Source: Verrucomicrobiales bacterium (GTDB taxonomy: Bacteria; Verrucomicrobiota; Verrucomicrobiae; Limisphaerales; UBA1100). From it: a stretch of 64,000 bases of DNA. The stretch is taken from contig PBLV01000046.1 in assembly GCA_002721895.1 (NCBI GenBank), forward strand, positions 1-64,000, read 5' to 3'. Below the pieces are notes generated by a model. That model did no database searches and was not told the origin of the DNA. It saw nothing but the letters and a program-made list of their open reading frames with translations. How positions within the stretch are numbered: the stretch's first letter is position 1; each line of letters begins with the position of its first letter. The position numbers were made by a program, and so were the translations under genes. Positions 1 through 9,200 of this stretch are shown piece after piece.

Positions 1-1604
1 GCGGCCAACTCGTTCTCCAGTTCGGCTAGCTTGGCATTATGTTTGCGCAAACCTTCCGGGGTAAAACGTGCCCGGCGAGCGAAGTCTTTCATGCGGGCGA
101 TTTCCTTTTCCAACTCCGCAATGCGCGCCTGATTCTTGTTGGCTGTCGGCTCGGTGGTTGCCCGGCCATCTTCGGTGACCACGATATTGATCTTCACGGT
201 GTTGAGCGGTGGCTTGTCTTCAAACACGCGACGGTATTCCAGCACGAGTTCTGACTTGCCGAGTTTCATCGCCTGAAAAGCGGCGGTTGACATCCCCGGT
301 GCTCCTGGGACTGGGCGACCGGCCTTGTGGGTGATTTTGCCCAAGAGTTTCAGTCCCGTGCCGCGTGTGACGTTATTCCAGGTGAATCCGGTGGTCGGGT
401 TGCCATTAAGTTTCACCCTCAGAGTACTGCCCAGCTTGACGGTAATCGTGCGGCCATTTTCGGCCTGACCCAAATGCAACTGATGGGCCTCTGTGCGACA
501 CAAGGCGCAGTCCCCACCACCCTCGGGAGCCGGGGGCGCAGCAACAGCCTCATTGCCGCCGCCCAGTTGAATGCTGGAAACGACCAAGCCATTCCGGGGT
601 GCGTCATCGGCAATGCGGCGATCCCTGATGTAGCAGGAAACGAGCAGTCCCTGTTTGTCGGAACGAATGTAACGGCGCTCGAATTGCTTGAGCGGTTTTT
701 GGGCTGTTTCCAAGGCGACCTTGTAGAGCTCATCAAGCGTCTTGGCGGGGGCACCTCGTTTATTCGTGCCGATGGCTTCACCCTTTTCCACCCAGCTGAT
801 TGTCTTAGGCTGAGCAGGTGCTCCGCCACCGGGTCGAGGCGGAGCAATGGGGCGCCTGCGGTTAAATGTACGATAATGCCGCTCGGTCACTTTGTTATTT
901 TTCACCACGATGGTGGTTTCATGACCGAAACCAACAAAGCTCTGAAAGCCGACCTTGTAACTATAATTCCCCTTGCACTTGGCCTTGGCTGCTTCCCAAG
1001 CCTTGATGCCAGCCTGTACTTTGGCCGTATCCACCTTGGCCTGTTCCTTGGCTAGCTCATTGGCCTTGGCTTCGGGATTAAACACTGGCGGCGGAGCCAC
1101 CGGCCGAGGCGGTGCCACTGGATCAACGGTAACCGGAGGAGCCGGCACGCCATTCTTGGCGTCATTGTCCAAGTTCTTTTGAATCCACCCGGCCAATGTG
1201 CTGCTGCCTAAGCCGTAACCACCGGGCAACGGGCGGAGGTCCTTGGTTTGCAGACGCGGCGGAGCACCCCAATGTTTGGGGAAAGGCTTTCTGCCTGCTA
1301 CCGGCTTGATGCCCGGTTTGCCCTTGTTGGCGTCCTTTTCCAGATTCTGTTGAATCCAACGGGCCAACGTGCCACTGCCGCGGCCATAACCTCCGGGGAG
1401 CACGCGCAGATCCCGTGTCTGTCGAAGAGGTGGCGCACCCCAATGTTCAGGGAATTGTTTGCCGTTGGGTGCCCGGAAAACTTTTTTTGCAGGGGCCTGT
1501 TTAGGGGCGTCTGCCTTGGGAAGAACCTGCGGTTGCGCAGGTTTGTCATCAGCAAATGTGATGCAGGTCGCAGTGGCGATGAACAATGATAGAGTTCGTT
1601 TCAT
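1..1604 (-). CDS. Secreted modular protein with two WG-WIQ motifs and a chagasin-like (I42) domain; 3' end beyond window
   Basis: The reading frame starts at the ATG at 1604 and stays open to base 1, so at least 534 residues are present and the C-terminus is missing. A short signal peptide (MKRTLSLFIATATCITFA) leads. Two copies of a 37-residue motif follow (about residues 51-87 and 108-144; key pattern HWGAPP, QT.DLR.LPGGYG, TLA.WIQ), then a proline-rich linker. Residues about 210-320 (YSYKVGFQSF, later TLDELYKVA) weakly resemble DUF6174-type lipoprotein domains. Residues about 385-475 match the chagasin/I42 protease-inhibitor fold: NPTTGFTW loop at 378-401 and a LVLEYRRVF strand after a gly-rich loop. 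A charged coiled coil follows to the edge. The I42 call rests on motif recognition; the role of the repeats is unknown. The neighbour at 1689-2531 shares one motif copy. Confidence 0.85.
   Translation of the reverse strand, partial: MKRTLSLFIATATCITFADDKPAQPQVLPKADAPKQAPAKKVFRAPNGKQFPEHWGAPPLRQTRDLRVLPGGYGRGSGTLARWIQQNLEKDANKGKPGIKPVAGRKPFPKHWGAPPRLQTKDLRPLPGGYGLGSSTLAGWIQKNLDNDAKNGVPAPPVTVDPVAPPRPVAPPPVFNPEAKANELAKEQAKVDTAKVQAGIKAWEAAKAKCKGNYSYKVGFQSFVGFGHETTIVVKNNKVTERHYRTFNRRRPIAPPRPGGGAPAQPKTISWVEKGEAIGTNKRGAPAKTLDELYKVALETAQKPLKQFERRYIRSDKQGLLVSCYIRDRRIADDAPRNGLVVSSIQLGGGNEAVAAPPAPEGGGDCALCRTEAHQLHLGQAENGRTITVKLGSTLRVKLNGNPTTGFTWNNVTRGTGLKLLGKITHKAGRPVPGAPGMSTAAFQAMKLGKSELVLEYRRVFEDKPPLNTVKINIVVTEDGRATTEPTANKNQARIAELEKEIARMKDFARRARFTPEGLRKHNAKLAELENELA
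1173..1283 (-). repeat. WG-WIQ motif copy 2 (111 nt, in frame)
   Basis: In-frame 37-residue unit beginning FPKHWGAPPRLQTKDLR and ending TLAGWIQKN. It has the same length as copy 1 with no indel; the substitutions are conservative (L/R swapped with R/L after APP, G to S before TLA). Confidence 0.9.
1344..1454 (-). repeat. WG-WIQ motif copy 1 (111 nt, in frame)
   Basis: In-frame 37-residue unit beginning FPEHWGAPPLRQTRDLR and ending TLARWIQQN. It is the first of two copies in the same protein and closely matches the copy at 2085-2195 in the next gene. Confidence 0.9.
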
Positions 1605-1688
1605 GTCGCGTTCGTTTTATGAGTGATTTTTTCTATGTAAATTCAGACGGACTCGGTCGGTAAATGCCCCACCTGTCATGTTTTTTCA

Positions 1689-2531
1689 TTAACGCCTTGG
1701 CTGAACTGGAAGTATCCTCGGTTGCCGCAGTTTACCATCGTTGCGCGGAACCTTGATGGTTTCAACGACCTGGAATTTAACTGGCACTCCGTTCACCTTG
1801 GCCCCTACATATTTCTGCGCATTGGCCATGGAATTCTTATCCCGGGCCACCACGTTTATCCAGGCGTCGTTGTTGTTTCGACCACCAACTCCTACTCCAA
1901 TAATTCCGGGCAGTGACAGGACGCGCCTGTCAAAATTTGTGGCAAATCGTACTGCGTTGACCTGTGTAGCCGTAAACTTTTTGTCTTTCTTATCCTTATT
2001 ATTATTTTCTTTTTTATTGTCAGGCTTGGAATTGGGTTTCTTCTGGTTCTGACCATTCTTTGCCTTGGCCTTGTCGCGGTCGATATTCCCTTGAATCCAC
2101 TTGGCCAACGTGCCGCTGCCACGACCGTAGCCGCCGGGAAGCGTGCGCAGGTCACGAGTCTGCCGAAGAGGCGGCGCACCCCAATGTGCGGGGAAGTGTT
2201 TTCCATTTGGGGCTGGTGCACCTTTTTTCTCCGGGGGATTGACGTTCCTTAAATCGCCCTCGGGAATGCCCAGTTGACGGCGCAAATGATCGCGGGACGC
2301 TTCAAGTTGCTTGAGCTTGAGTTGGTATGCCGAGGCCAATTGGGGAGAAAGATTGCCCCGGGTCATAAAATTACGAAGATTTGCAATCTGAGTCTCCACA
2401 TTCTTTAACTGGAACTGAAGGGCGACGACATTGGATGGGGCAACGCGCGGAGCACCCGGCACCGCAGCTGCGAGCTGAGGAACTCCTGTCGAAACAACTG
2501 CTATGGCCAGTAAAATTCGTATCATTTCCAT
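1689..2531 (-). CDS. Secreted modular protein: coiled coil, one WG-WIQ motif, VGVGV-type C-terminal domain
   Basis: 280 residues. A signal peptide ends around AAAVPGAP. Residues 38-90 form a charged coiled coil (QLKNVETQIANL ... LEASRDHLRRQL) resembling the C-terminal coil of the preceding protein. Residues about 113-149 are the third WG-WIQ motif copy. A Lys/Asn-rich low-complexity linker (about 155-185) precedes a compact C-terminal domain (about 190-265) with LPGIIGVGVGG and a later VNGVPVKFQVVE strand, reminiscent of the small beta-alpha-beta domain at the N-terminus of NAL1-like trypsin-type peptidases; no protease catalytic residues are present. The start could also be the second ATG two codons in. 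Function unknown. It lies 84 bases upstream of the I42-containing gene on the same strand, suggesting co-expression. Confidence 0.85.
   Translation of the reverse strand: MEMIRILLAIAVVSTGVPQLAAAVPGAPRVAPSNVVALQFQLKNVETQIANLRNFMTRGNLSPQLASAYQLKLKQLEASRDHLRRQLGIPEGDLRNVNPPEKKGAPAPNGKHFPAHWGAPPLRQTRDLRTLPGGYGRGSGTLAKWIQGNIDRDKAKAKNGQNQKKPNSKPDNKKENNNKDKKDKKFTATQVNAVRFATNFDRRVLSLPGIIGVGVGGRNNNDAWINVVARDKNSMANAQKYVGAKVNGVPVKFQVVETIKVPRNDGKLRQPRILPVQPRR
2085..2195 (-). repeat. WG-WIQ motif copy 3 (111 nt, in frame)
   Basis: Begins FPAHWGAPPLRQTRDLR and ends TLAKWIQGN; exactly 37 codons, almost identical to copy 1 in the neighbouring gene. Confidence 0.9.
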
Positions 2532-2654: not shown

Positions 2655-5021
2655 TTATTCGTGGATTTCGTAGATGGTGCCGTTGAGCACGAACTGGACG
2701 TTTTGGCCGAGGGCAAGCCATTGGGCGGCCTTGGGTTCCTTAGCCAAGAGGGCGAAGTAAGCGTCGCTGTTGAATTTCACGCGGGTGCGCTTGGCCTTGG
2801 CGGACTCGGCTTTTTGCACGTCGGTATCGACCCAGAATTTGTCATTTTGGCAAAAGTTCTTGCCGCCGAAATATTGCATGGGTTGCACAACCTGCCGCGC
2901 CTTGGAGGATTGCCCGGGAGCACCCTTGCGTCCGGGGACAATAAATCCGCCGGGTGCAGCTGGGGCTCCGTTCGCAAGCCCGGCGCCGTTGCCTCGGTAG
3001 CCACCCAAGCCTTGCGCAGCCTCGGCGTTGCTGCGCTGCTGGGAGGCCAGGGCGTTCGTGGCTTCCTTGAGAAGCTTGGCAGCCCGCGCGCTGCCGATGG
3101 CGAGATCGCCAGCCTTGTCGCGCTTGAAGCTCTCGAACTGCGCGCGCGCCTGCTCAAGCACCTCGCGATCGGCTTCAAACCGACGCAGCGTGCGGGCGGC
3201 CATTGGCACGCCGCGGCGACGTTCATCCTCGATGATGAGGTAGGCGGTGTAGGGGGTGACGATGCCATACTTGCGCGCTAGCTGGGTGACTTCGTCCTTC
3301 AGTTCCTTCTTCTCGCCGTGCAGGCGAATTTCATCGAGCAAATAACCAACGCGCCGCGTGGCCCACAGGCGCGGGATAAAGTCGTGGTCGGCCTCCTTGG
3401 GAAAATCGACGCCAAACTCGGATTGCGTTTTTTTGCCGTTGACGGTGCCCTCGAGCAATACGTCGCCACGGGCGTCCTTATTATAGCGGCCCACGAGGAC
3501 AATCTCCTCGCCTTTAAACAGGTCTGGCAGCCTGTTGGGGTAGAGCTTGCTGACGCGCACGCCGTCAGGGAACTTAAGCCGCGGGTTGGCGAGCACGGGC
3601 TCCTTGATCTTGGTGTAAAAACTGGAGATCTTCACCTCAATGTCTTCATTGGGCGTCACGTATTGGCTGCTGGCGCGTGTTTCCTCGGTGATCTTGTCGA
3701 GCAGGTGCGCATTGACGTCCGTGCCGATGCCAAAGCTGAACACGCGCGTGCGGCCCGCGGCCTTCTCGACATTCTTCACAATCTGATCCTCGCTGGTGAT
3801 GCCAATGGTTGGCCTGCCGTCGGTGAGAAAGATCACCACGAATGGCCGGTCGCCCTTGGGCTGCAGCGCCAGTGCGTCCTCCAGCGCCTGATTAATGGCC
3901 GTGCCGCCGATGGGCTTGAGATCCTTGATGAACTCCGTGGCCTGCTTGCGGTTCTTGCCATTGGCCGACTTCAACCCATCGAAGAGTGCTTCCGTCTCCG
4001 TGGAGAACCGAATGACCTCAAAGCGGTCGCCGTCGTTCAGGTTGGCCACGCAGAATTGGAACGCCTTCTTCGCCTGCTCCAGCTTGTTGCCCGCCATGGA
4101 GCCGGAAGTATCGATGACAAAAGCCACGTCCTTCTCCACCACCTTGCCTTCGCCCACGTCGATACCCGGCGAGGCCAGCAGCAGGAAGTACCCGTCGCCG
4201 TCGCCCTCGCGGTGCGAGATCAGGTTTACCGCGATGCCCTTTGCCTTGGGCTGGTAGTACAGCTTGAAATCCTGGCCCGGCTTCACCCCCTTGGCCTCCA
4301 GGCCGATGGTCGCCCGCTGCTTTCCGTCGCGCTTGATCTCCACCTCATGCGTCGGCGAGTAAATCGCCTTCAACGGCGCGCCTGCCTCCAGCTCCACCTT
4401 GATTGATAAATTCTTGATCGGCTTGCTCGAGTACTTGCCCGTGCCCAGCGGGTACGCGTACTCCACCAGCCCCGCGTCATGCTTCAGCACCTGATTGTAC
4501 GTCAGCTTAATGCGCTTCTTGCCGTGCGGTTCGAACGGGAAAATGCTCACCTTGAAAAGCCGCTGGCTTGAGAACTCCAGCAGCGCCGGATCCTTCATCT
4601 TGCGCACGATGTCCGTGTAAATCTGTCGCGCCTTCTTCGCGTCCAGCAACTCCGCCTTCTGCAGCTTGCCATTGATCTCCATGCGGAAATCCGCGATTGC
4701 CGCACCCTTGGGCACCGGGAACATGAACGTACCCTCACGCCGCCGGCTGTTGGGGTTGTAAAACACCTGCTCCACCGTCGTGCGCGCCACGCGGTCGGCA
4801 ATCTTCACGGTCACCTGCTGGCTCTGCAGTTCCATCGGCGCAAACACGTGCGGACGCGGGCGCGGCCACGGCACCGGGCGCGGCGGGATGACAATGGGCG
4901 GGCGCGGATGCGGCGGAATCACAATAATATCGTGGCAGACAATCAGCCCGCCTGCGTACGACGAAAAGGAGGGAGCCAACACTGTCCCCGCCAGCGCTAA
5001 AGAGAGAAGCAACCGTTTCAT
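2655..5021 (-). CDS. Secreted VIT domain / von Willebrand factor A domain protein
   Basis: 788 residues from the ATG at 5021, chosen because it starts a clear signal peptide (MKRLLLSLALAGTVLA); an upstream in-frame start at 5096 would add a non-signal extension. After a proline-rich stretch a VIT domain occupies about residues 60-185 (FMFPVPKGAAI, KKARQIYTDIV). A VWA domain starts near residue 297 with a complete MIDAS: DTSGSM (about 303), the GGTAI threonine and the LTDG aspartate. The 480-640 region continues the inter-alpha-trypsin-inhibitor heavy-chain-like layout (YLIIEDERRRG), followed by a Gly/Ala-rich linker and a short C-terminal domain ending IYEIHE. Such proteins are thought to mediate metal-dependent adhesion or surface scaffolding; the partner is unknown. 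It is divergent from the DUF1080 gene at 5148. Confidence 0.9.
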   Translation of the reverse strand: MKRLLLSLALAGTVLAPSFSSYAGGLIVCHDIIVIPPHPRPPIVIPPRPVPWPRPRPHVFAPMELQSQQVTVKIADRVARTTVEQVFYNPNSRRREGTFMFPVPKGAAIADFRMEINGKLQKAELLDAKKARQIYTDIVRKMKDPALLEFSSQRLFKVSIFPFEPHGKKRIKLTYNQVLKHDAGLVEYAYPLGTGKYSSKPIKNLSIKVELEAGAPLKAIYSPTHEVEIKRDGKQRATIGLEAKGVKPGQDFKLYYQPKAKGIAVNLISHREGDGDGYFLLLASPGIDVGEGKVVEKDVAFVIDTSGSMAGNKLEQAKKAFQFCVANLNDGDRFEVIRFSTETEALFDGLKSANGKNRKQATEFIKDLKPIGGTAINQALEDALALQPKGDRPFVVIFLTDGRPTIGITSEDQIVKNVEKAAGRTRVFSFGIGTDVNAHLLDKITEETRASSQYVTPNEDIEVKISSFYTKIKEPVLANPRLKFPDGVRVSKLYPNRLPDLFKGEEIVLVGRYNKDARGDVLLEGTVNGKKTQSEFGVDFPKEADHDFIPRLWATRRVGYLLDEIRLHGEKKELKDEVTQLARKYGIVTPYTAYLIIEDERRRGVPMAARTLRRFEADREVLEQARAQFESFKRDKAGDLAIGSARAAKLLKEATNALASQQRSNAEAAQGLGGYRGNGAGLANGAPAAPGGFIVPGRKGAPGQSSKARQVVQPMQYFGGKNFCQNDKFWVDTDVQKAESAKAKRTRVKFNSDAYFALLAKEPKAAQWLALGQNVQFVLNGTIYEIHE

Positions 5022-5147
5022 ATTTCGATTGGACGTTCGCAACTGGGAGAATACTCCCCGCGATTGACTTGGCAATGGCAAATGACGCCAAATCATGAAT
5101 TGCGCTGCGGCTTTGACTTTCGACCGATGACTTTCTAGTTTCCCCGG

Positions 5148-6134: not shown

Positions 6135-6216
6135 GACCTACAACCAAATACCCATCTCAAAACCCTAACAAACATCGGGGCATTTCAGGATTTGAAATTC
6201 AATTTTGTTTAAAACA

Positions 6217-7233
6217 ATGCGTCTCCTCCTCACCCTGCTTGCCACCGTCGGCCTTCAGGCCGCGCCGGTGAAAATCCCACTCGGCACTCTGCCAGGCTTG
6301 CAATTTGACAAGCCGCGCTTTTCCGCCGAACCCGGACAAGCGGTCGAGATCACCTTTAAGAACAATGACGAGATGGCACACAATCTCGTCTTCATTGCGC
6401 CCGGCAAACGGCTCGATGTTGTGCAGGCTGCCGCCTTGTTGCCACCGGATTCCAATTACATTCCTCGCGGGAAATCCATCCTCTGGCACACGCCCGTGCT
6501 CAAACCCGACGAAACCGCGACCCTGAAATTCACGGCTCCACGCGAAAAGGGAATTTATCCCTACGTCTGCACCTTCCCCGGGCACGGCCTAGTGATGTAC
6601 GGTGCCATGTACGTGGGCATCAAGATGCCGACCTTGGCGCAGGACGAAAACGTCTCCCCTCTTGCCCGCGCCGGCAGCTCAAACAAGACCTTCCACGCCT
6701 GGCCCCATCGCCGACCGTTGATGTACCGCATCTTCATGCCCGACGCCTCGCCGGCCGCCATCGCCGTCGCTCTGCCCCACGGCATCTCCTACTGTTGGGA
6801 CGCTGGCCGCTGCCGCCTGCGCTACGCTTGGATCGGTGGTTTTGTGGACCCCATGCCCGTCTGGCGCGGCAACGGCAACGGATTAGCTAAGATCATCGGC
6901 AACAAGTTCTGGACCGCTCCGGACATGTTCCCGATCCAAATCGGCCGCGCGCTGCAAAAGGTTGAGTTCAAGGGGTACCATAAAATCGATGGCCATCCCG
7001 TGTTCCACTACAACATCAACGGGCAGGACATTTTCGAACGCATCAATGCACTCCCCGACGGCATGGGCATCGCGCGGCACTTCCGCATCCCGGGCGTCAC
7101 GCAGCCTGTGCGGCTCACCCTTGGCAAAGGGCATGCGGAGATTGACTCGGAGATCACCAACGGCGTCACCACTTTGCCTCCCGGGAAAGCCCGCGCCTTC
7201 ACTATCACCCACCGTCACGTCCACAAAAAATGA
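6217..7233 (+). CDS. Azurin/plastocyanin-type blue copper protein with C-terminal extension
   Basis: 338 residues from ATG 6217; a TTG four codons upstream is less likely. A signal peptide (MRLLLTLLATVGLQAA) is followed by a cupredoxin domain (about 17-135) with a full type-1 copper site: His55 in MAHN, then Cys118, His123 and Met127 with the C-x4-H-x3-M spacing of azurin (VCTFPGHGLVMYG). Residues about 150-338 form a second domain with a cysteine pair (CWDAGRCRLRYAW) and a W.G.F.D core, of unknown function but common beside sorbosone-dehydrogenase-like proteins in this phylum. Its TGA overlaps the ATG of the propeller at 7230, so the two are translationally coupled. The copper domain may accept electrons from the propeller protein; that is inference. 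Confidence 0.9.
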   Translation: MRLLLTLLATVGLQAAPVKIPLGTLPGLQFDKPRFSAEPGQAVEITFKNNDEMAHNLVFIAPGKRLDVVQAAALLPPDSNYIPRGKSILWHTPVLKPDETATLKFTAPREKGIYPYVCTFPGHGLVMYGAMYVGIKMPTLAQDENVSPLARAGSSNKTFHAWPHRRPLMYRIFMPDASPAAIAVALPHGISYCWDAGRCRLRYAWIGGFVDPMPVWRGNGNGLAKIIGNKFWTAPDMFPIQIGRALQKVEFKGYHKIDGHPVFHYNINGQDIFERINALPDGMGIARHFRIPGVTQPVRLTLGKGHAEIDSEITNGVTTLPPGKARAFTITHRHVHKK

Positions 7234-9200
7234 ATCGCCTTGCCTCCACTCTCGCCTGCCTTGCTTCCTTGACCCTCCACGGGGCGAACATTGGCGATTA
7301 CTACAAGGTTGAAAACATCTCCACGCCCAAGGGACTGGATGCCCAGATCGGCGGCCTCACCTTTCTGCCCGACGGCCGGCTTGCCGCTTGTTTTCATCGC
7401 GGCGAGGTTTATACCTACACACCCAAATCCAAAGCATGGAAGCTGTTCGCCGACGGCCTGCAAGAACCCTTGGGCATCGTGGCCGAGGACGATCACACGC
7501 TGGTCGTCATGCAACGCGCTGAACTCACCCGCCTACGCGATACGAACAAGGACGGCGAAGCCGACCATTACCAGACCATCAGCGACCGGTTCGGCATGAC
7601 CGGAAATTATCATGAGTTTGCCTTCGGCCCCGCACGCGACAGGGAAGGCAATTACTTCGTCGGCCTCAACCTCGCCTCCAACGGCGCCAGCATCCGCCCT
7701 GAAATCCGCGGAGAATTCCGTCACTACGGGCTCACCCGAGAACAGTTCTACCAGAACCACCGCGCCGGCTCCGGCCGCATGTATTCCGCTGCCCCGTGGC
7801 GCGGCTGGGTTTTAAAGATCAGCCCTGACGGCAAAACCACCCCCCTCGCCTCAGGCTTCCGTTCCCCCAACGGCGTGGGCGTTGATCCCGCAGATCGCCT
7901 CTGGGTCACTGACAACCAGGGCGATTGGCTCGGCACCAGCAAACTTTTTCTCGTTCAACCCGGTGCCTTTCACGGCCACCCCGCCAGCCTTCCATGGGCC
8001 GACATGTGGGAGAAAGGTCGCAACCCATTAAAGGTGCCCGCTGCTGAATTCGATGCCTTCCGCATCCGGGCCGCCGTATTGTTTCCCCAAGGCACCATGG
8101 CCAACAGCCCCACGCAACCGATTACCGATACCACCCGTGGCCAGTTCGGCCCTTTTGCCGGCCAACTGTTGGTTGGCGAAATGAACCGACCACGCATCAT
8201 GCGCGTGCTCCTTGATGAAGTCGCCGGCCAGACCCAAGGTGCCTGTCTTCCCTTCATCGACAATGGAGGTCTCCGCCGCGGCATGCACCGTTTCGCCTTT
8301 GCGCCCGACGGCAGCCTGTGGGCTGGCTCCACCCGGCTCTCATGGGCCGGTGGCAGCGGCCTCCAGCGCATCATCTGGACCGGCAAAACCCCGATGGATC
8401 TCGCCGCCATCAAGCTCACGGCCGACGGCTTCAACCTTACCTTCACCAAGCCACTGGCCAAAACTCCCGCCGATCAAATCAAGCTTCAGCGATACTATTA
8501 CAGGTACCACCAAGGCTATGGCTCCCCCCAACTCGGCCGGGAACCCGTTGCCATCAACAAACTGGAAACCTCCAAGGACGGAAAAACCCTTGCCCTCACC
8601 CTCGACAAGCTCAACCCCGGCTATGTTTACCAATTTGATTTAAAACCACTCACCGCTACCGACAAGACCCCCATCCTCAATTCTCTCGCCTGCTACACCC
8701 TCAATACCCTAACCAACGGCGATGACAAGGCCCCGCATCTGGCAAGCGGCAGCGCTCAAGCCCGGCCCATCCCCGTCAAGCCGGTAACGGCCAAGTCAGT
8801 CAGGTTAACCACCTCTCCGCAAATCCTCGACGCCGCCGAGGCCGGCCGCAACGGACCCAGCTTCGACCGCAGCAATGCCGGCTACACCGGTAAAGGCTAC
8901 GCGGACTTCGGCACCCGCACTGGCGAAATCCTGGAGTGGCGTGTGCAATTAAGCACCACCGAAAAATACACGCTGAATTTCCGTTATGCCGTGGCTGGAG
9001 GAAATCGCCCACTGCGATTGAAGATCAACGGCAAGATCACCCAAAAATCCATGCCCTTCAACGACACCGGCAATTGGACGACATGGAAGGACATTAGCGC
9101 AAATGCCGAACTGAAGGCAGGCGAAAACATCATCCAGTTGGAATCCATCGTTGCCGCCGGCCCCAACATTGACCGCCTCCAAGTCACTCGCCAACAATGA
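7230..9200 (+). CDS. Secreted sorbosone-dehydrogenase-like beta-propeller with C-terminal CBM-like domain
   Basis: 656 residues, signal peptide MNRLASTLACLASLTLHG. Residues about 20-390 form a glucose/sorbosone-dehydrogenase-like propeller (GGLTFLPDGRLAACFHRGEVY, DTNKDGEADHYQT, GFRSPNGVGVDPADRLWVTDNQGDW). Residues about 395-490 form a beta-sandwich seen also at the C-terminus of the paralogue at 10037-12304. The last 120 residues resemble a CBM6/CBM35 module (FGTRTGEILEWRVQL ... GENIIQLESI). It overlaps the azurin gene by four bases upstream (ATGA) and the integrase-like gene by four bases downstream. A periplasmic or secreted quinoprotein-like oxidation of a sugar or polyol is plausible; substrate and cofactor cannot be read from the sequence. 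Confidence 0.88.
   Translation: MNRLASTLACLASLTLHGANIGDYYKVENISTPKGLDAQIGGLTFLPDGRLAACFHRGEVYTYTPKSKAWKLFADGLQEPLGIVAEDDHTLVVMQRAELTRLRDTNKDGEADHYQTISDRFGMTGNYHEFAFGPARDREGNYFVGLNLASNGASIRPEIRGEFRHYGLTREQFYQNHRAGSGRMYSAAPWRGWVLKISPDGKTTPLASGFRSPNGVGVDPADRLWVTDNQGDWLGTSKLFLVQPGAFHGHPASLPWADMWEKGRNPLKVPAAEFDAFRIRAAVLFPQGTMANSPTQPITDTTRGQFGPFAGQLLVGEMNRPRIMRVLLDEVAGQTQGACLPFIDNGGLRRGMHRFAFAPDGSLWAGSTRLSWAGGSGLQRIIWTGKTPMDLAAIKLTADGFNLTFTKPLAKTPADQIKLQRYYYRYHQGYGSPQLGREPVAINKLETSKDGKTLALTLDKLNPGYVYQFDLKPLTATDKTPILNSLACYTLNTLTNGDDKAPHLASGSAQARPIPVKPVTAKSVRLTTSPQILDAAEAGRNGPSFDRSNAGYTGKGYADFGTRTGEILEWRVQLSTTEKYTLNFRYAVAGGNRPLRLKINGKITQKSMPFNDTGNWTTWKDISANAELKAGENIIQLESIVAAGPNIDRLQVTRQQ

What the first reader, a model, noticed from the sequence alone, without database searches (positions are those of the whole stretch)
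1173..2195. A 37-residue HWGAPP...LPGGYG...WIQ motif repeated within and between two adjacent secreted proteins
Three in-frame 111-nt copies (1173-1283, 1344-1454 and 2085-2195) have the same length, no indels and keep HWGAPP, QT.DLR.LPGGYG and TLA.WIQ, in two otherwise different proteins next to each other. I know no named domain with this pattern. The density of Trp, Pro and Gly suggests a small folded unit or a binding hook; sharing it with an inhibitor-bearing neighbour hints at a common partner.
Basis: seen in the sequence. Interest (0 to 1): 0.75.

Follow-up and report, generated by a model that had tools for sequence, protein, structure and literature searches.

The report
Portable protein module alongside protease inhibitors
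A short, almost unchanging protein building block, found in marine bacteria, some marine viruses and some protists, keeps turning up inside or beside protease inhibitors and is probably itself a small, cysteine-free protease inhibitor that the domain libraries searched here do not describe.

Summary
In detail: three in-frame 37-residue copies on the minus strand, 76-89% identical as protein, under purifying selection. The conserved unit is nearer 50 residues.

It is a real, unnamed domain (no Pfam, NCBIfam, PDB-sequence or significant PDB-fold match). It occurs patchily in Verrucomicrobiota and Planctomycetota (1-5 copies in each of 40 genomes), in some marine phage contigs and in protist proteins. 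It can be gained whole: some alpha-2-macroglobulins carry it in a loop where 22 aligned relatives do not.

Best explanation (confidence 0.4): a protease-inhibitor unit. Searches that used only the module returned proteins with chagasin I42, subtilisin-propeptide-like, potato inhibitor I and cystatin-like domains. Its core Q-T-[R/K]-D-L-R-P-L-P-G resembles Kazal reactive loops (ovomucoid domain 1: C-T-E-D-L-R-P-I-C-G), and the would-be P1 residue is the column that differs most between copies within a protein. Sequence support for Kazal is weak and chosen after the fact; most contexts show no known inhibitor. A binding or anchoring module remains a live rival. A VIT-vWA gene sits directly upstream of the window's gene type in 16 of 42 comparable loci.

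The parts
1152..1313 (-).
1323..1487 (-). Module copy A1 (protein A residues 40-94); core 1344-1454; putative P1 residue Arg at 1413-1415
2064..2228 (-). Module copy in protein B (residues 102-156); core 2085-2195; putative P1 residue Arg at 2154-2156
3..1604 (-). Protein A, 534 aa in the window and running off its left edge: signal-like N-terminus (by eye), two modules, I42 domain, coiled-coil-like end (by eye)
   Evidence: longer relative (at least 625 aa, further module) in L023
186..443 (-). Chagasin-type peptidase inhibitor domain I42 (PF09394) of protein A
   Evidence: E 3.7e-17; coordinates
1689..2531 (-). Protein B, 280 aa: signal-like N-terminus (by eye), one module, C-terminal region without significant database match
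2655..5096 (-). VIT-vWA protein (813 aa) directly upstream on the same strand; this gene pair recurs
   Evidence: VIT 9e-31, VWA_3 7e-25; neighbourhood

Best explanation
The 50-residue unit is a portable, cysteine-free peptidase-inhibitor module. Most likely the stretch Q-T-[R/K]-D-L-R is an exposed canonical loop (P3-P2-P1-P1'-P2'-P3') offered to a trypsin-like serine protease, held by the packed W/P/G/Y scaffold and the C-terminal helix. Chains of the module with I42 (cysteine proteases) and propeptide-like domains (subtilases) would make many-headed inhibitors, secreted next to a VIT-vWA partner in the window's bacterium; single copies on secreted hydrolases would shield them from proteolysis. 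Shown: the module, its conservation, its domain partners, its insertion into other folds and the gene pair. Inferred: inhibition, the reactive loop, the protease class and every physiological role.
For: (1) Searches using only module residues returned inhibitor fusions of unrelated families: I42 in 16 and PF22148 (subtilase propeptide-like) in 9 of 62 locus proteins scanned (62 of 79); potato inhibitor I in 22, and I42, PF22148 and SQAPI (cystatin-like) in one each, of 97 proteins newly listed by the third search; I42 9, PF22148 5 and potato inhibitor I 4 of 117. After masking the module, 332 proteins form 51 BLAST clusters; four hold a peptidase-inhibitor or protease-trap domain: the 155-member I42/PF22148 cluster, the 28-member potato inhibitor I cluster, A2M (3) and P0148. 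(2) In 20 module genomes, 10 of 11 I42 domains lie on module ORFs, by contig and ORF length. (3) The module is inserted in the thioester domain of an alpha-2-macroglobulin, a protease-trap family. (4) In putative phage contig L004 the next gene begins with PF22148. (5) The core matches Kazal loops: hhalign's best local alignment puts T-R-D-L-R on T-L-E-Y-R; the score beats 200 of 200 column shuffles with three Kazal domains and 199 of 200 with five. Ovomucoid domain 1 reads CTEDLRPICG. (6) Putative P1: 350 of 404 unique copies R or K, T-x-D kept in 384 of 404, and it differs most between copies of one protein, rank 1 of 49 columns. (7) AF2 order: loop, strand, strand, helix, as recalled for Kazal; a LEKTI (Kazal-type) domain is Foldseek rank 2 of 12 PDB matches, not significant (E 4.2). 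(8) A VIT-vWA gene directly precedes the module gene in 16 of 42 loci of the window's gene type.
Confidence: 0.4

Rival explanations
1. A binding or anchoring module: the 50-residue domain holds secreted proteins to a conserved surface or partner (matrix polysaccharide, cell envelope or another protein), and inhibitors are just one cargo among many.
For: Terminal placement: of 72 complete locus ORFs the module ends within 16 residues of the C-terminus in 29 and starts within the first 45 residues in 25. Many partners act on carbohydrate: DUF5060 10, PF06439 6, CBM9 2 of 62, PF06439 7 of 97 and 12 of 117; LysM in phage proteins. Near-invariance over many residues suits a conserved partner.
Against: Few copies for a general anchor: 1-5 per genome, one in 24 of 40 genomes. 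Several protist-type carriers with potato inhibitor I, GFA, kinase-like or NTPase domains show no signal peptide to the eye, though others (P0148, P0150) do. Internal insertion in A2M and GFA folds suits an anchor poorly.
Confidence: 0.28
2. A protease-associated module that is not an inhibitor, for example an adaptor, bait or protective cap that docks onto proteases or inhibitors.
For: Same partner evidence without the uncertain reactive-loop reading.
Against: Does not explain by itself the Kazal-like T-x-D-L-R-P-L core or the R/K bias.
Confidence: 0.15
3. A self-association module that makes oligomers or cross-links proteins (a foldon-like function).
For: Small, aromatic- and Gly/Pro-rich, found at either end or in a loop, and in a phage protein coded near a tail-fibre gene.
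Against: Tandem arrays of up to six divergent copies in one chain (P0146) and conserved polar residues Q, T, D, S are not needed for this; oligomers could not be modelled here.
Confidence: 0.12
4. A mobile in-frame coding element (comparable to Rickettsia palindromic elements, recalled) spreading through genes with no function of its own.
For: Present/absent difference among A2M relatives; copies inside a GFA domain and, by reading, inside an APH-like kinase (P0236).
Against: 1-5 copies per genome; dN/dS 0.12-0.32 between the window's copies.
Confidence: 0.05

Closest known systems
Kazal-type serine protease inhibitors (MEROPS I1; Pfam PF00050/PF07648)
   Same: Core T-x-[D/E]-[L/Y]-R-P-[L/I]-x-G, a P1-like column between conserved neighbours, order loop-strand-strand-helix (Kazal order recalled), tandem many-headed proteins
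   Different: No cysteines (4 of 405 unique copies have any), whereas Kazal domains are disulphide-bonded; no significant profile or fold match; P2 and P1' nearly invariant
Potato inhibitor I / eglin family (MEROPS I13; PF00280)
   Same: T-x-D-x-R loop seen in the partner domains of P0136, P0174 and others; on the same protein as the module in 22 of 97 and 4 of 117
   Different: Profile comparison no better than shuffles (83 of 200 at least as high)
Chagasin-type inhibitors, PF09394 (I42)
   Same: Frequent fusion partner, including the window's protein A
   Different: A separate domain of about 90 residues; similarity to the module was not tested
Inter-alpha-trypsin inhibitor (VIT-vWA heavy chains with the double-headed inhibitor bikunin; recalled)
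   Same: A VIT-vWA protein encoded next to a multi-domain inhibitor-like protein in 16 of 42 loci
   Different: Bacterial; no Kunitz domain among the families listed; no covalent link known; VIT-vWA proteins also occur in bacteria without inhibitors (recalled)
Stefin-chagasin fusion of Bacteroides fragilis (PMC2784779, passages read)
   Same: A bacterial many-headed inhibitor in a sparsely distributed family
   Different: Built of two known inhibitor families; no such module mentioned in the passages seen

Membership tests
Kazal (I1) | Three conserved disulphides (six Cys) | tested here: not met
   4 of 405 unique copies contain any Cys
Kazal (I1) | Reactive loop C-T-P1-[E/D]-[Y/L]-R-P-x-C-G | tested here: inconclusive
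   Loop aligns in register without the Cys; hhalign P 0.03-0.06, 0 and 1 of 200 shuffles at least as high, family chosen post hoc
Kazal (I1) | Fold: loop, two-stranded sheet, helix | tested here: inconclusive
Kazal (I1) | Profile match to known members | tested here: not met
   PDB profile search 0 hits at E<=10, though that PDB copy holds Kazal chains; no Kazal family among those listed by Pfam scans of module proteins (one search listed 25 of 39 families)
Kazal (I1) | Inhibits serine proteases | not testable with these tools
   needs assay
Potato inhibitor I (I13) | Profile match of the module itself | tested here: not met
   83 of 200 shuffles score at least as high
Any named Pfam/NCBIfam domain | Match over the module | tested here: not met
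   Proteins A and B: no match over the module at Pfam E<=1; NCBIfam none at E<=0.1. In divergent P0023 a 12-residue 'Cupiennin' match (E 1e-6) touches the module's tail; I take it as low-complexity noise
Selfish in-frame coding repeat | Many copies per genome, DNA-level conservation | tested here: not met
   1-5 matches per genome in 40 of 40 genomes; dN/dS 0.12-0.32
Canonical (Laskowski) inhibitor, as a mechanism | Variable P1 between conserved P2 and P1' | tested here: inconclusive
   rank 1 of 49 by identity, 15-16 of 49 with residues grouped; P2 0.09-0.16, P1' 0.01-0.02

The most novel reading that the evidence does not exclude
A previously undescribed, cysteine-free canonical serine-protease inhibitor fold that has crossed between marine bacteria, phages and protists and is inserted at will into other proteins; and, in the window's lineage, a bacterial counterpart of the inter-alpha-trypsin inhibitor, in which a VIT-vWA 'heavy chain' is co-encoded with a many-headed inhibitor built of this module, I42 and propeptide-like domains.
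Probability: 0.25. Interest if true: 0.88.

Novelty: new variant of a known kind. Interest (0 to 1): 0.72.

Why it matters
If right, it adds a new inhibitor unit without disulphides, small enough to sit in loops, and shows many-headed protease defence shared between bacteria, phages and protists in the sea. Even if inhibition is wrong, a near-invariant 50-residue domain missing from the libraries searched here, and gained by clean insertion into conserved proteins, is a good test case for how small domains move between domains of life.

Tried and rejected
Scattered mobile repeat: rejected by copy number and dN/dS. General secretion or anchoring tag: not excluded, but copy number is low. Homology to potato inhibitor I: tested, not better than shuffles. 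Exclusive link to I42: rejected, since I42 is common without the module. Single-sequence fold gave a poor model (pLDDT 63) and was dropped. Annotated phages: no match; plasmids: one match at E 0.4, taken as chance. Literature: literal motif strings found only in two elastin papers (listing); searches on chagasin/PVC, new domain, coccolithovirus/inhibitor, accessions, eglin/Kazal, Kazal/dinoflagellate, chagasin fusion and VIT gave nothing on this module in the titles and abstract starts listed (some searches listed 15 of 36, 10 of 67 and 10 of 37 papers); passages of PMC2784779 read. Kazal_2 in 20 module genomes: no match, but the control rang nowhere, so uninformative. BFVD matches G8DGV1 and A0A516LEX9 could not be named. 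The C-terminal part of protein B has only chance-level PDB matches. On checking, a neighbourhood count noted as 17 of 42 was corrected to 16 of 42.

Full report
What is there. Two tandem genes on the minus strand encode secreted-looking proteins A (3-1604, running off the window) and B (1689-2531). The conserved unit extends to about 50 residues. Protein A also has a chagasin-type I42 inhibitor domain (E 3.7e-17). A near-identical contig, L023 (97.8% over 5 kb), shows protein A continuing to at least 625 residues with a further copy. L023 is titled Planctomycetaceae, but among the loci its VIT-vWA neighbour is nearest to ones titled Verrucomicrobiota (81% to L053), so I think the window is verrucomicrobial and the label of L023 doubtful.

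Distribution. No Pfam, NCBIfam or PDB-profile match over the module was found. The genome scan gave 188 stretches, 139 confirmed; the best 80 gave 78 loci, of which 77 are titled as Verrucomicrobiota or Planctomycetota groups and one just 'bacterium'. The 40 source genomes that I searched have 1-5 matches each at E<=0.01, 24 of them one. Sampling of the two phyla found it in 3 of 387 and 3 of 392 genomes, centre genomes included; only 18-19 candidates per genome were scored, so these are lower bounds. One family gave 9 of 101. IMG/VR gave 14 loci. L001 is a phage by its tail-fibre neighbour, and L004 has a virion-protein match upstream; the nature of L005-L013 is unsettled. Protein searches add protist proteins: P0147 is named Prorocentrum cordatum, P0023 and P0182 come from EukProt; for the other protist-type proteins the origin is my inference.

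Behaviour of the module. It ends within 16 residues of the C-terminus in 29 of 72 complete locus ORFs and starts within the first 45 residues in 25; others are internal or tandem. It can be a true insertion: in a family of planctomycete alpha-2-macroglobulins it occupies a thioester-domain loop in 4 distinct aligned genes, while 22 aligned relatives have a short loop there, about 41 residues fewer in L107 than in L088. In that family sample 50 of 61 genomes matched the query, and 3 (G039, G818, G877) had the module within it. Against solved TEP1 the same place opens up. In P0142 the module lies between two halves of a GFA domain. After masking the module, 332 proteins fall into 51 clusters, 33 of them singletons, some of which are fragments or little but modules. 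Caution: all collections were made by shared words or patterns of the module, so its conservation is overstated; its partners were not selected for.

Link to protease inhibitors. I42 16, PF22148 9 and A2M 2 of 62 locus proteins (17 of 79 left out as similar to others, among them the third A2M, L063). Potato inhibitor I 22 of 97, with I42, PF22148 and SQAPI in one each (I78 matched 4, weakly; 25 of 39 families shown; the 97 are the newly listed proteins, which listed 120 of 167). I42 9, PF22148 5 and potato inhibitor I 4 of 117, with weak I78 and I71 matches in one each. For one search I left out 25 of the 142 proteins P0004-P0145 as relatives of others; these include three glutaredoxin and three LysM carriers by the listings, so non-inhibitor partners are undercounted there. 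The sets are related by descent, so the cluster count is the sober one: 4 of 51 (domains). In 20 of the 40 module genomes 10 of 11 I42 domains lie on module ORFs, yet I42 is common in the phylum of G023 (96 of 387). Of 13 PF22148 matches in the same 20 genomes, 5 lie on module ORFs. In contig L004 the gene after the module gene starts with PF22148 (E 9.7e-7).

Mechanism. The core Q-T-[R/K]-D-L-R-P-L-P-G reads like a canonical reactive loop; ovomucoid domain 1 has C-T-E-D-L-R-P-I-C-G. The P1 column is R or K in 350 of 404 unique copies; between copies of one protein it differs most of all 49 columns (0.73-0.74) while its two neighbours differ in 0.01-0.16. With similar residues grouped it drops to rank 15-16, which weakens this test. 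Protist-type arrays do mix P1 types, e.g. P0147 R, E, K and P0148 M, R, M, D. The AF2 model (pLDDT 85, pTM 0.63) has loop, strand, strand, helix, but no solved fold matches significantly. I could not inspect model coordinates. I therefore hold 'inhibitor unit' at 0.4.

Gene neighbourhood. A VIT-vWA gene lies directly upstream on the same strand in 16 of 42 loci whose proteins resemble protein A (of 78 loci). My strict rule (gap 0-199 nt) counts 10; the other 6 I added by hand: L019, L022, L026 and L038 overlap by 25-43 nt at the start that I called, L053 has a 254-nt gap, and in L023, as in the window, gene B lies between. L059, outside the 42, has a partial hit upstream. The pairing recalls inter-alpha-trypsin inhibitor; this is an analogy, not a finding.

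Verdict. A real and unnamed domain, most likely part of a protease-inhibitor toolkit, with mechanism unproved.

Noticed in passing
L023 protein A residue 539 on; P0138, P0155, P0157: A second recurrent module, about 40 residues (tFeeWvkGGkkIPagmvFtGGSPWFNErTGkrRspeEVYkmlyG), accompanies the first in many bacterial carriers; a similar GG[S/T]PLFDE-TG stretch occurs in protist-type carriers too.
   Followed up: partly
window 2655-5096: VIT-vWA gene directly upstream of the module genes in 16 of 42 comparable loci.
   Followed up: partly
window 6205-7233 and 7230-9200: Azurin-like and PVC-type heme-binding-like genes (weak NCBIfam matches); relatives lie near module genes in ten and nine loci respectively.
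   Followed up: partly
L087, L088, L063: Planctomycete alpha-2-macroglobulins with the module in the thioester-domain loop; 22 aligned relatives lack it.
   Followed up: yes
L005-L013 and proteins P0156, P0160-P0163 and relatives: A family of signal-like start, module and Lys/Glu/Pro-rich proteins on contigs called viral, whose protein relatives also lie on long contigs (e.g. 268 kb for P0160); true host unclear.
   Followed up: no
BFVD entries G8DGV1 and A0A516LEX9: Viral proteins with a closely similar predicted module fold (63% and 46% identity over 43 columns); virus names not available here.
   Followed up: no
window 1689-2006 (protein B C-terminus): A 105-residue C-terminal region without significant match; among the 78 loci only L023 has it.
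   Followed up: partly
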